64,000 nucleotides of DNA from [Mycobacterium] vasticus (GTDB lineage Bacteria; Actinomycetota; Actinomycetes; Mycobacteriales; Mycobacteriaceae), in the NCBI RefSeq assembly GCF_020181595.1, contig NZ_CP084028.1:2700212-2764211 (forward strand). Reading direction: 5' to 3'. Under the pieces are notes generated by a model that saw nothing but the letters and a program-made list of their open reading frames with translations, made no database searches and had not been told where the DNA came from. The position numbers were made by a program, and so were the translations under genes. Shown here one piece after another: positions 11,133 to 14,783 of the stretch (positions are counted from its first letter, which is position 1; each line of letters begins with the position of its first letter).

Positions 11133-11971
11133 CCGAATCCCTATACAACCGATTGGTCGCCGAAGGCGACGCGCCGGACGCGCCGGTGCGGGTCCACGTG
11201 GAGCATCGTGGTGACCGGGCGGTGGTGACGTTGCACGAACCCAGCCGGCTCAACGTGCTGTCGGCGCCGCTGGTGCGCCAACTGCGGCGCGCGCTGATCG
11301 CCCTGGACGCCGACCCCGGCGTCCGCGCCGTGGTGCTGACCGGCGCCGATCCCGGATTCAGTGCCGGCGGCGACCTGAAGATGATGTCCGCGGTCACCGA
11401 GGGGCGAAATGACCCGGCACCGGAGGGCGTCGCCGACGTCTGGCGGTGGATTCGCCGCGAGTTCGGCGGTGTCGCGCGGCTCATCGCCGGATCGGACACC
11501 ATCTTCATCGCCGCACTCAACGGTGCCGCCGCGGGTGTCGGCCTCGCGTGGGCACTGACCTGCGATCTGACCATCGCCGGCGATCGTGCGGTGATCGTGC
11601 CCGCCTTCGGCCGCCTGGGCCTGCTTCCGGAGGTGGGCACCAGCTGGGCGTTGACCCGGCGGCTCGGCTACCAGGGCGCGTTGGCCTACTACCTGTGCGG
11701 CGAGCCGATCGATGCCCGCAGCGCGCAACAGCTCGGCCTGGTGCATGAAGTCGTCCCCCATGATCAGCTCGTGACGGCCGCCGACCAGTGGTGTTCGCGG
11801 GTAGCGGCGATGCCGTCGCACGCCACGGCCATGGTCAAACCGCTGCTGCGCGCGGCCGCCGACGCCGGCTGGAACGAGGCTCTAGCGCTGGAGGAGTTCG
11901 CCGAACCCGTCTGTTTCAGCACCGCCGCGTTCGCCGACAACGTGCGGACCATGCTGGCCGGGCAGCGCTAA
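11129..11971 (+). CDS. Enoyl-CoA hydratase/isomerase family protein
   Basis: 280 aa crotonase-fold protein. Oxyanion-hole strands are visible as GFSAGGDLKMM and LNGAAAGVGLA, followed by the F-x-x-L-G-L-L-P-E-V-G segment that carries a catalytic acidic residue. Members hydrate or isomerise acyl-CoA double bonds in fatty-acid or sterol breakdown; the exact substrate is not evident. The start overlaps the TetR stop (ATGA), with GGAGGAGG just upstream. Its stop is shared in a CTAA overlap with the convergent PGRS gene. Confidence 0.92.
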   Translation: MTESLYNRLVAEGDAPDAPVRVHVEHRGDRAVVTLHEPSRLNVLSAPLVRQLRRALIALDADPGVRAVVLTGADPGFSAGGDLKMMSAVTEGRNDPAPEGVADVWRWIRREFGGVARLIAGSDTIFIAALNGAAAGVGLAWALTCDLTIAGDRAVIVPAFGRLGLLPEVGTSWALTRRLGYQGALAYYLCGEPIDARSAQQLGLVHEVVPHDQLVTAADQWCSRVAAMPSHATAMVKPLLRAAADAGWNEALALEEFAEPVCFSTAAFADNVRTMLAGQR

Positions 11972-13479
11972 GCGGGCGCCCCCGGGGTGCCGCCGGCCCC
12001 ACCGGCGCCGCCGGTGCCGTCGACGTTGGGGCTGCCGGGCAGCCCCGAGCCACCGGTTACACCACCGGTTGCCCCGCCGTTGCCGCCGTTACCGCCGCTA
12101 CCGCCGACGCCGACACTTGCGGTACCGCCGTTGCCGCCGTCGCCACCCCGGCCACCGACGCTGCCCACCTGGTCGGCGGCCGCGCCGCCCTTGCCGCCGT
12201 TACCGCCGTCAGCGCCGACTCTGCCGCTGCCGCCGGCCCCACCGGCACCGCCGGCGCCGCCGTTACCGCCGGTCGCACCGGTGCCTCCGGCCCCGCCGTT
12301 GCCGCCGTCGCCGCCGGCACCTCCGGTGCCCATCGGGTTGGTCAGGCCGGCGCCGCCTGCGCCACCCGCGCCGCCATCACCGTCGTCTCCAGCCTTCCCC
12401 AAGGCGCCGACCCATCCGGCTTTGGCGCCCGCGGCTCCGGCACTTCCACCGTTACCACCGTCGCCGGCGTTGCCGCCCATCGGCTGGGAAGCCGTTCCGT
12501 CGCTGCCAGTCGCCCCGACCCCGCCAACACCGCCGGCACCACCGTTTCCGCTGGATCCCAGGAACCACCCGGCGTTGCCGCCGACGCCGCCGTTGCCGGC
12601 GTCGCCGCCGTTCAACGCGGTCACGAGATTTCCGTTGACACCCGCCCAGCCGGATCCGCCCTGACCACCGGTGCCGCCGAAGCCCCAACTGGCCAGCGCG
12701 TTGCCACCGGTGCCACCGTCGCCGCCGTCGTGCGCCACCAGGTTGGTGCCGTCGAAGGTGTCATGGAAGCCGGTGCCGCCCTGACCGCCGATGCCGCCGT
12801 CGCCGTAGAACAGGCCACCGTTGCCGCCCTGGCCACCATCAGCGGCCTCGATCACGGTGCCGTCGGCAGCGAGGTAGGCGGCGGCACCTTGGCCGCCCAT
12901 GCCTCCGTTGCCGAACAGTCCGGCGTCACCGCCGGCCCCGCCGATGCCACCGTTGACTCCGGCCACCCCGGCCACGCCGGTGCCGCCGTCGCCGAACAGG
13001 AAGCCGCCGTCACCGAGGTCGCCCAGGCCCAGCCAACCGAACAGCGAGGTGTTGGCGCCGGTGAAGTCGTCGACGCCGTCACCGATCAGGTCGCGACCGA
13101 ACATCAGCACCCACGGGGTGTTGATCAGATCGATCGTGAGCTGGTTACCGGCGTTGTGCAGCCAGTCCTCCACCATGCTGTGGATCGGCGTGTAGAACCA
13201 GTCCTGGTAGAGGTCGGCCCAGTCACCCGGTGAGAACGCATTGAAGTCGACCGAGCCGATGTCGAACGGTTCGGCGGCGGCGAGGCCGATCTCACCGGCG
13301 TCGAAGGTGGCCGGTTCCACAGCGGCGGGCTCGAAGGCGGCCGGATCAAACCAGGTGCCGGGGTCCAGGAAGTCGAAGTCCGCCTGCGCCGACGGTGCCA
13401 CCGCGAGTGGCGTCAACGCCAGGGCCAGTGCCGCGACGGCACCACCGAGCGCACGTCCCACACGATCAAGACGCTTCAT
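11968..13479 (-). CDS. Exported PGRS-like glycine-rich protein without PE domain
   Basis: 503 aa. Residues 1-33 are a Sec signal peptide (MKRLDR, Ala/Leu core, AQA cleavage site before Asp34). Residues 34-150 form a unique acidic/aromatic region with W-F and D-W pairs. From about 155 to the end runs a PGRS-type array of GG-A/N/D/T-GG units (GGNGG, GGAGGA, GDGG). PGRS arrays normally follow a PE domain; here a classical signal peptide takes its place. It lies 17 bp after the PE-PPE-domain hydrolase on the same strand, so the two form an operon. Function is unknown; a surface location is likely. The start has AAGAAAGG upstream. Confidence 0.85.
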   Translation of the reverse strand: MKRLDRVGRALGGAVAALALALTPLAVAPSAQADFDFLDPGTWFDPAAFEPAAVEPATFDAGEIGLAAAEPFDIGSVDFNAFSPGDWADLYQDWFYTPIHSMVEDWLHNAGNQLTIDLINTPWVLMFGRDLIGDGVDDFTGANTSLFGWLGLGDLGDGGFLFGDGGTGVAGVAGVNGGIGGAGGDAGLFGNGGMGGQGAAAYLAADGTVIEAADGGQGGNGGLFYGDGGIGGQGGTGFHDTFDGTNLVAHDGGDGGTGGNALASWGFGGTGGQGGSGWAGVNGNLVTALNGGDAGNGGVGGNAGWFLGSSGNGGAGGVGGVGATGSDGTASQPMGGNAGDGGNGGSAGAAGAKAGWVGALGKAGDDGDGGAGGAGGAGLTNPMGTGGAGGDGGNGGAGGTGATGGNGGAGGAGGAGGSGRVGADGGNGGKGGAAADQVGSVGGRGGDGGNGGTASVGVGGSGGNGGNGGATGGVTGGSGLPGSPNVDGTGGAGGAGGTPGAPA

Positions 13480-13496
13480 TGTCGAACGACCTTTCT

Positions 13497-14783
13497 TCAG
13501 GAGTCGAAGCCGAGGGCGTCGGCGATCGGGGACAGGTCGACGTTGGTGTCCAACGGAGCGTCCTGGGGGTCGGTGGCCATCGCCGGTGCGCCCCACCACG
13601 AACCGGTGTCCTGGACGTCGAAGAAGACGCGCTCCGCCGCGGCCCACAAGGTGGAGAACGGCTCCTCCGACAGGAATCCGCCCGGAATGTAGGTCTTCGG
13701 GTCAGCCAATTCCTTGAACGCGTCCTGAACGCCCTGGTTCCAGGCGTTGGCCAGGGCGGAGCTGATGTCCGACAGGCTGATGTTGCTGGGCAACAGGTTC
13801 CAGCTGATGGTGGTCGGCACGTTGGCGGGCCCCTGGTTCCAGCCTTCGGTCAGGCTGCCGTAGCCCAGGTTCACCAGGATGCGCATGCTCGGTTCCAGCA
13901 ACGCGGCCAGCGGGCTGCCCCAGGACGGGTTGAGCCGCAACAGATCCAGCAACGGCAGACTCTGGCTGGGGATCATGTAGTAGTTGGTCAGGCTGCTGGG
14001 GTCGGTGGTGTCCAGTTCGATCGCGTTCGCGATGTCACTGGGACTCAGTCCCAGATACCCGTTGTGCAGCAAGAGCATGCCGGCGAGGGCATTGAGTGTC
14101 GCCAGCAGGTTCAGCGGATACTTCGGAAAGTCGGCGAACCCGTCGTACTCCATCGTGTAGACGTCGGTGGCGAAGTAGTCCGGCGTGGGGTGGCCCAGGG
14201 TCAGCCCGGCCAGGAAGCTGACATCGCCGCCCGTCAAATTCAGCATCTCGACCAGGCCGCCGTTGGGATTGGCGGTATTGCCGACCAACACGAAGTGAAC
14301 GTCCTCGGCCGGCACACCTTGGTAGTGCAGCTGTTCCATGGTCATCGACGACATCGCCGAACTCTGCGAGTAGCCGAAGACGTACACCGGATTTTCGGCG
14401 TTCACTTGTCCGGTGGCAATCTCTTTGCTGATCGCATCGGCAAGTATCTGCGCCCCTTGGACCTCGGAGACATTTCCGGGAAAGTACAACTGCGGTGTGA
14501 AAAGCGATTGTGGCGTCCCGGTGAAACCGTGCGGCTGCAGATAAAACAGGTTGGCGGCGTTCACATAACCGTCCGACGGCAACGGAACACCGCTGCCGCC
14601 CATCACGAACGCGGTACCGCCCCCGGTCAGCTCCGCTGCCGAAGCCGATGCAGCGGACGCCGTTGGGGTCAAAGGCGAAGCGCGGAATACTCCGGCCGCG
14701 CCGGCAAGCACAGCTAAAGCAGTTACGCAGCTGAGCAATACGCGAACACGGCGCAGCGCAACCGCACCATCAATGACAGTCAT
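13497..14783 (-). CDS. Exported PE-PPE-domain serine hydrolase
   Basis: 428 aa. Signal peptide or anchor at 1-48 (VLLSCVTALAVLAGAAG core, then Ala/Ser-rich). An alpha/beta-hydrolase PE-PPE domain follows: TAFVMGGSGVPLPSDGYV at 58-74 and the nucleophile elbow GYSQSS with Ser139, a G-x-S-x-S version of the lipase motif. In M. tuberculosis such domains are fused to PE or PPE modules and act as esterases; here the domain stands alone behind a Sec-type signal. ATG at 14781-14783 is preceded by TTGGAAGG. First gene of an operon with the PGRS protein. The C-terminal region includes a Trp-Trp motif (GSWWGAP). Confidence 0.88.
   Translation of the reverse strand: MTVIDGAVALRRVRVLLSCVTALAVLAGAAGVFRASPLTPTASAASASAAELTGGGTAFVMGGSGVPLPSDGYVNAANLFYLQPHGFTGTPQSLFTPQLYFPGNVSEVQGAQILADAISKEIATGQVNAENPVYVFGYSQSSAMSSMTMEQLHYQGVPAEDVHFVLVGNTANPNGGLVEMLNLTGGDVSFLAGLTLGHPTPDYFATDVYTMEYDGFADFPKYPLNLLATLNALAGMLLLHNGYLGLSPSDIANAIELDTTDPSSLTNYYMIPSQSLPLLDLLRLNPSWGSPLAALLEPSMRILVNLGYGSLTEGWNQGPANVPTTISWNLLPSNISLSDISSALANAWNQGVQDAFKELADPKTYIPGGFLSEEPFSTLWAAAERVFFDVQDTGSWWGAPAMATDPQDAPLDTNVDLSPIADALGFDS

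What the first reader, a model, noticed from the sequence alone, without database searches (positions are those of the whole stretch)
11968..14783. Exported PGRS protein and exported PE-PPE hydrolase in one operon, both without PE/PPE targeting domains
Both module types normally sit behind a PE or PPE domain that routes them through a type VII system. Here each has instead a Sec-type signal peptide, and the two genes are 17 bp apart on one strand. This suggests the surface PGRS array and the esterase module were moved to general secretion together, or represent an older state before fusion to PE. The pair could form a cell-surface system: an esterase plus a Gly-rich scaffold.
Basis: partly seen in the sequence, partly recalled or inferred. 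Interest (0 to 1): 0.75.

Follow-up and report, generated by a model that had tools for sequence, protein, structure and literature searches.

The report
Sec-type PGRS protein with surface esterase
A mycobacterium related to Mycolicibacter carries side by side a glycine-rich PGRS gene and a PE-PPE-type hydrolase gene, neither with the PE or PPE start used by tuberculosis relatives; both proteins are predicted to be exported by the general secretion route, which is likely the older form of PGRS proteins.

Summary
Two minus-strand genes 17 bp apart encode a 503-aa PGRS protein and a 428-aa PE-PPE-domain hydrolase; no PE or PPE domain is found in either, nor in the open frame upstream. The pair is adjacent in 13 of 13 other genomes found with the hydrolase orthologue. 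It is not a local oddity: no PE is found in any of this genome's 27 PGRS genes (two have unreadable or short starts), nor PE/PPE in its 18 PE-PPE genes, although 17 PE and 49 PPE matches lie elsewhere. Of 98 genomes drawn from the genus, 48 have PGRS matches at E<=1e-8: those examined follow PE in 17 genomes (43 of 43) and in none of the other 31 (0 of 80). On an outgroup-rooted rpoB tree the 16 PE genomes placed sit in one clade nested among the others, so the PE-less, Sec-type form is likely older. PE_PGRS11-like proteins keep the full linker module of the Sec-type proteins behind PE; a Gordonia protein has that module without PE. This bears on a doubt in a 2025 review about PGRS proteins of M. 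smegmatis. Export is predicted, not shown; that the two proteins work together, and the hydrolase's substrate, are inference.

The parts
11968..13479 (-). PGRS protein gene, 503 aa, no PE domain found
13381..13479 (-). predicted Sec-type signal peptide of the PGRS protein (residues 1-33, APSAQA|DFDF)
   Evidence: crude composition test, 8 of 8 orthologues
13075..13224 (-). linker module, residues 86-135, FYxPIHxxxExWL...LINTP...GRDLIGDG
11971..13014 (-). PGRS repeat region, about residues 156-503
   Evidence: AF2 model of low confidence
13480..13496 (-). 17-bp spacer with likely ribosome site AGAAAGG
   Evidence: AGAAAGG stands before the PGRS gene in 7 of 7 named orthologous loci
13497..14783 (-). 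PE-PPE-domain hydrolase gene, 428 aa, no PE/PPE domain found
14634..14783 (-). predicted signal peptide or signal anchor of the hydrolase (residues 1-50)
   Evidence: cleavage site unclear
13860..14477 (-). PE-PPE domain (PF08237), residues 103-308
14367..14369 (-). Ser139 of GYSQS, predicted nucleophile
   Evidence: invariant in 43 of 43 rows and 18 of 18 family members of this genome
14142..14144 (-). Asp214, predicted catalytic
   Evidence: invariant
14064..14066 (-). His240, predicted catalytic
   Evidence: invariant

Best explanation
The two neighbouring genes encode a PGRS repeat protein and a PE-PPE-domain hydrolase that lack PE and PPE domains and carry instead predicted Sec-type signals, are likely co-transcribed, and are predicted to act at the cell envelope, with the PE-less form being the likely ancestral form of PGRS proteins. 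Shown by sequence: gene structure, no detectable PE/PPE, the Ser-Asp-His residues, conservation of the pair, the clade split between PE-led and PE-less PGRS proteins in the genomes examined, and the same linker module in both kinds. Inferred: Sec export and signal cleavage (from composition only); that the linker and first PGRS block seat the glycine-rich sheet in the mycomembrane, as proposed in print for PE_PGRS proteins; that a PE domain replaced the Sec signal in an ancestor of the PE_PGRS clade, PE_PGRS11-like proteins keeping the full old linker; that the hydrolase cuts or transfers acyl chains of surface lipids, as reported for its relative Chp2; and that the PGRS protein is its partner or surface scaffold.
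For: No PE in 27 of 27 PGRS genes of the genome (one start is masked and one frame opens late) and no PE/PPE in 18 of 18 PE-PPE genes, with 17 PE and 49 PPE matches and 4 EccC-type loci over the cut-off elsewhere. The crude Sec-signal test passes in 24 of 27 here and 15 of 16 in the six related genomes, against 3 of 43 PE-led proteins. Genus draw: 48 of 98 genomes have PGRS at E<=1e-8; PE-led in 17 genomes (43 of 43 matches examined, one weakly at 1.3e-6), PE-less in 31 (0 of 80 with PE). rpoB tree with outgroup: the 16 PE genomes placed fall in one clade of 20 rows (SH-aLRT 98, quick method), one change of state in all. Full linker module behind PE in 17 of 18 loci examined, from 14 of 17 PE genomes; one such protein is named PE_PGRS11 by its source; in the module tree these group with PE-less ones (99). 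Gordonia protein with the module, a signal that passes the crude test, and no PE. Pair conserved in 13 of 13, kept where the enoyl-CoA hydratase downstream is missing in 4 of 7.
Against: No dedicated signal predictor and no experiment. Among PE-less proteins of the remaining genomes the test passes in only 26 of 37 (17 of 37 in a first version limited to 200 residues), and their shuffles pass in 62 of 740. One single-gene species tree by a quick method; the counts use best-scoring matches, not all. PE-less proteins also occur in Mycobacterium in the strict sense (P0154 from M. shimoidei, P0010 from HUMS_1102779), so the split is not absolute. In the module tree 13 of 37 PE-less rows from the remaining genomes fall among ordinary PE_PGRS rows; transfer or gene conversion is possible. 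AlphaFold gave no usable model of the PGRS protein (mean pLDDT 42), and the hydrolase model (68) found no PDB match at E<=0.001. Upstream SDR and downstream ammonium-transporter genes are kept in 7 of 7 loci too, so part of the pair's conservation is synteny. Nothing tests whether the two proteins meet.
Confidence: 0.72

Rival explanations
1. PE-led PGRS is the old state; the Mycolicibacter group and the other PE-less lineages each lost PE and gained a Sec signal.
For: Leaders of one enzyme, LipY, are PE, PPE or a signal peptide by species (PMC7550000 passage), so replacement can go either way; some PE-less rows fall among PE-led ones in the module tree.
Against: PE-less genomes form several successive branches outside one nested PE clade, so this needs several parallel replacements; the module without PE is in Gordonia.
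Confidence: 0.15
2. The neighbourhood is historical only: two unrelated envelope genes that happened to land side by side and are inherited together.
For: 1 of 18 PE-PPE genes beside a PGRS gene; chance of at least one such neighbourhood 29%. The SDR gene upstream and the ammonium transporter downstream are also kept in 7 of 7 loci, so part of the conservation is plain synteny.
Against: Short spacer (17-63 bp) and AGAAAGG kept in 7 of 7 named loci; the pair persists where the enoyl-CoA hydratase next to it gives no match (4 of 7).
Confidence: 0.4
3. The PGRS protein is a chance glycine-rich protein unrelated to PE_PGRS proteins.
For: PF21526 scores under its cut-off on this protein (18 of 27 bits).
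Against: Linker with GRDLIGDG and block GDGGFLFGDGG align with PE-led and PE-less relatives; 25 of the 27 PF21526 matches of the genome pass the cut-off.
Confidence: 0.04

Closest known systems
PE_PGRS proteins (PGRS behind a PE domain)
   Same: GRPLI-like motif then GGX repeats; linker and first PGRS block alignable; PE_PGRS11-like members have the same full linker, several with the GRDLI variant
   Different: No PE domain found; predicted Sec signal instead
PGRS proteins of M. smegmatis and relatives noted in PMC11939664 (2025)
   Same: PGRS domain in mycobacteria outside the classical PE_PGRS species; that review calls the annotated N-termini of the two M. smegmatis genes questionable (part of section 2 read)
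   Different: Those two proteins were not examined here; the parts of the review that I saw do not propose a Sec-type start
LipY-type lipases led by PE, PPE or a signal peptide
   Same: Same module on different export leaders by species (PMC7550000 passage)
   Different: Other enzyme family; there the switch is of one enzyme, here of a repeat family
PE-PPE-domain proteins without PE/PPE: Rv1184c (Chp2), MSMEG_0412
   Same: PF08237 with Ser-Asp-His, predicted signal (PMC3037379 and PMC5101647 passages)
   Different: P0002 is no member of NCBIfam 'acyltransferase PE' NF041570 (34.8 of 580 bits) and its gene lies beside a PGRS gene

Membership tests
PE_PGRS | N-terminal PE domain | tested here: not met
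PE_PGRS | GRPLI-type linker motif | tested here: met
   GRDLIGDG at residues 128-135; the D variant is in print for PE_PGRS11 (passage)
PE_PGRS | PGRS repeats (PF21526 at cut-off) | tested here: inconclusive
   18 bits against a cut-off of 27; Gly-X repeats visible and conserved
PE_PGRS | export by ESX-5 | not testable with these tools
   -
PE-PPE domain proteins (PF08237) | domain over cut-off | tested here: met
   174.2 bits against a cut-off of 21
PE-PPE domain proteins (PF08237) | GxSxG/S plus Ser, Asp, His | tested here: met
   GYSQS, S139, D214, H240 invariant
PE-PPE domain proteins (PF08237) | alpha/beta-hydrolase fold | tested here: inconclusive
   the best-ranked PDB matches are mostly esterases, thioesterases and cutinases, none at E<=0.001
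Acyltransferase PE (NF041570) | score over cut-off | tested here: not met
   34.8 bits against a cut-off of 580
Sec-exported proteins | cleavable signal peptide | tested here: inconclusive
   composition test only

The most novel reading that the evidence does not exclude
The PE_PGRS family of M. tuberculosis and its kin arose when a PE domain replaced the Sec signal of an already existing, general-secretion surface PGRS protein; PE_PGRS11-like proteins are the retained link with the complete old linker, and Mycolicibacter still uses the old form, here beside a dedicated surface lipid esterase or acyltransferase.
Probability: 0.5. Interest if true: 0.8.

Novelty: new variant of a known kind. 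Interest (0 to 1): 0.62.

Why it matters
Some papers describe PE_PGRS proteins as present only in pathogenic mycobacteria (PMC10216338, PMC4229189, abstracts) or as having emerged in slow growers, and the PE domain as what takes them to the surface (PMC7550000, passages). A PE-less, Sec-type PGRS family in other lineages would mean that the PGRS domain came first and that its surface role does not need type VII secretion. It would give a setting outside the tuberculosis germs in which to ask what a PGRS domain does, bears on the doubtful N-termini of PGRS proteins in M. smegmatis, and offers an account of the odd linker of PE_PGRS11.

Tried and rejected
AlphaFold2 of the PGRS protein on 8 orthologues gave mean pLDDT 42, no use; the hydrolase gave 68 and no PDB match at E<=0.001. 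A complex of the two could not be predicted with these tools. PDB by sequence: no match. Promoter and terminator scan of 11900-15100: one sigma-70-like site on the minus strand inside the hydrolase gene, no terminator-like site, also none between the genes; this says little in a mycobacterium. Literature search for trehalose polyphleates with PE-PPE: 0 papers.

Considered and rejected: a missed PE/PPE start; a joint move of just these two genes (both families lack PE/PPE genome-wide); an absolute rule of one PGRS type per genome (M. shimoidei P0154 and HUMS_1102779 P0010 are PE-less; whether those genomes also have PE_PGRS was not tested).

Dropped before counts: 3 of the 40 regions fetched were too short upstream to classify; G007 (fragmented rpoB) and G044 (no rpoB match) are missing from the species tree; 12 of the 50 genomes without a PGRS match at 1e-8 and 8 of 19 other-genus genomes with rpoB were used in it; alignment A3 holds 25 of the 27 modules of this genome; of 23 near-full-length A3 matches listed, the 18 that came as loci were examined. 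The lists are cut off, best-scoring matches first. In the signal test 3 of 27 genes of this genome fail: one with few basic residues, one with a masked stretch, one whose frame opens late. In one search two neighbour genes (hydratase and SDR) were translated in a wrong frame; one search repeats that comparison in frame, with the same outcome, and is the one cited.

The statement that I found no paper giving PGRS proteins a Sec-type start rests on searches over open-licence PMC only; most of the papers listed there were not opened.
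Full report
What is there. The window holds two minus-strand genes 17 bp apart: 13497-14783, a 428-aa protein with a PE-PPE domain (PF08237, 174.2 bits), and 11968-13479, a 503-aa glycine-rich PGRS protein. No PE or PPE domain is found in either frame, open part upstream included. The hydrolase has GYSQS and Ser139, Asp214 and His240, invariant in 43 aligned sequences and in the 18 family members of this genome; PMC3037379 (passages) names a conserved Ser, Asp and His with GxSxG/S as the triad of this domain. The PGRS protein has a positively charged start, a hydrophobic core and APSAQA|DFDF, then an acidic spacer, a conserved module ending in GRDLIGDG, and Gly-X repeats. 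The hydrolase start is basic and hydrophobic, but its cleavage site is unclear, so an uncleaved anchor is possible.

Conservation of the pair. A scan of genome contigs gave 7 loci with the hydrolase, all titled Mycolicibacter; all 7 have the PGRS gene next, same strand, 17-63 bp on, after AGAAAGG. Of 98 genomes drawn from the genus, 7 including this one hold an orthologue at E<=1e-100, and the 6 others all have the PGRS gene next: 13 of 13 in all, and the 13 hydrolases all differ from each other (at most 95.8% identical). The SDR gene upstream and the ammonium transporter further downstream are kept in 7 of 7 named loci, while the enoyl-CoA hydratase next to the PGRS gene gives no match in 4 of 7 (which repeats with two queries put in frame). 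One locus (L041) has a PGRS protein shortened in frame by about 150 residues, both ends kept.

It is the rule of this genome. In none of the 27 PF21526 matches is a PE domain found (one start is masked, one frame opens late), and the 18 PE-PPE genes have neither PE nor PPE, though PE (17 matches), PPE (49) and four EccC-type loci over the cut-off are present. A crude test for a Sec signal passes in 24 of 27 (shuffled 10 of 540), 15 of 16 in six related genomes (13 of 320), 26 of 37 elsewhere (62 of 740), and in 3 of 43 PE-led proteins (80 of 860); a first version limited to 200 residues gave 17 of 37 for the third set and the same for the others. Six PGRS genes here carry a GH5 glycosidase behind the repeats (five; L019, identical to P0012 by eye), so the module carries different cargo.

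The split in the genus. 48 of 98 genomes have a PGRS match at E<=1e-8. Their best match is PE-led in 17 genomes and PE-less in 31; with further matches, 43 of 43 examined in the first set have PE (one at 1.3e-6) and 0 of 80 in the second. Three fetched regions were too short to classify. An rpoB tree of 66 genomes (46 of the 48, 12 without PGRS, 8 of other genera as outgroup; quick method, SH-aLRT only) puts the 16 PE genomes placed in one clade of 20 (98) nested among PE-less lineages; one change of state is enough. The count itself has no direction; the outgroup and the several PE-less branches outside give it.

The link. The linker module of this genome's PGRS proteins (alignment A3) was searched in the 17 PE genomes and 9 without PGRS: it matches in 17 of 17 and 0 of 9, over nearly its full length in 14 of 17. 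Of 18 such loci examined (of 23 listed) 17 have PE before it; the other has a masked stretch there. By eye 13 of the 18 share one C-terminal tail; Pfam on two gives PE, PGRS and a histidine phosphatase, and P0232, named PE_PGRS11 by its source, is of this kind. PMC7550000 (passages) notes the unusually long linker and the changed GRPLI of PE_PGRS11; the present comparison offers a reason. In a midpoint-rooted quick tree of 140 modules, 17 of these group with 67 PE-less ones (99), apart from all 43 ordinary PE_PGRS rows; but 13 of 37 PE-less rows from the remaining genomes fall on the side of ordinary PE_PGRS. Holding all PE-led rows as one clade is not rejected (AU p 0.742). So one fusion followed by shortening, two fusions, or later exchange remain open. 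A Gordonia alkaliphila protein has a start that passes the crude signal test and the module (E 6.8e-13 among 13 proteins) with no PE match; Pfam finds no family in it.

How it likely works. Inferred: both proteins leave by Sec. A model in print for PE_PGRS33 (PMC10216338 passages) makes PGRS a flat sandwich of polyglycine-II helices with a hydrophobic foot proposed to insert in the mycomembrane, GRPLI locking the fold; the same linker and repeats here would seat this protein in the same way. The hydrolase would act on ester lipids at the surface: Rv1184c (Chp2) is reported as an acyltransferase of polyacyltrehalose synthesis, and an MSMEG_0412-GFP fusion needs its signal for a peripheral location (PMC5101647 passages). 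P0002 is not a member of NF041570. A partnership is plausible from the kept neighbourhood and not shown; at least one such neighbourhood by chance in such a genome has odds of 29%.

What is known. Leader switching is in print for LipY (passage), PE-PPE proteins without PE/PPE in mycobacteria, Rhodococcus and Nocardia (passages), and PGRS domains in M. smegmatis with questionable N-termini (PMC11939664, part of section 2 and passages). I found no paper that gives PGRS proteins a Sec-type start or a Sec origin (open-licence PMC only, most listings not opened). Hence a new variant of a known kind, with a testable account of where PE_PGRS proteins came from.

Noticed in passing
L010, L012, L019, L022, L023, L025 (same genome): Six PE-less PGRS proteins carry a GH5 glycosidase domain behind the repeats; DUF2599 is another cargo in relatives.
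   Followed up: partly
P0168 (Gordonia alkaliphila, 625 aa): Signal-like start, linker module and PGRS-like repeats outside Mycobacterium; transfer or old origin not resolved.
   Followed up: partly
P0154 (Mycobacterium shimoidei, 262 aa): Named 'PE-PGRS family protein' by a source, but no PE domain is found; the start passes the crude signal test.
   Followed up: partly
window 2329-2601 and 3193-3681 (+): The window itself holds a PE and a PPE match (coordinates converted), so type VII-type leaders are encoded nearby.
   Followed up: no
L041:7361-8413: Orthologue of the PGRS protein with an in-frame internal loss of about 150 residues, linker and C-terminal repeats kept.
   Followed up: no
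L033 (same genome): A PGRS frame that opens just inside the expected signal region; a disrupted start or another cause.
   Followed up: no
L038, L039, L040, L041: The enoyl-CoA hydratase gene next to the pair gives no match in these four loci, and the TetR gene is reduced to a 59-residue match or absent.
   Followed up: partly
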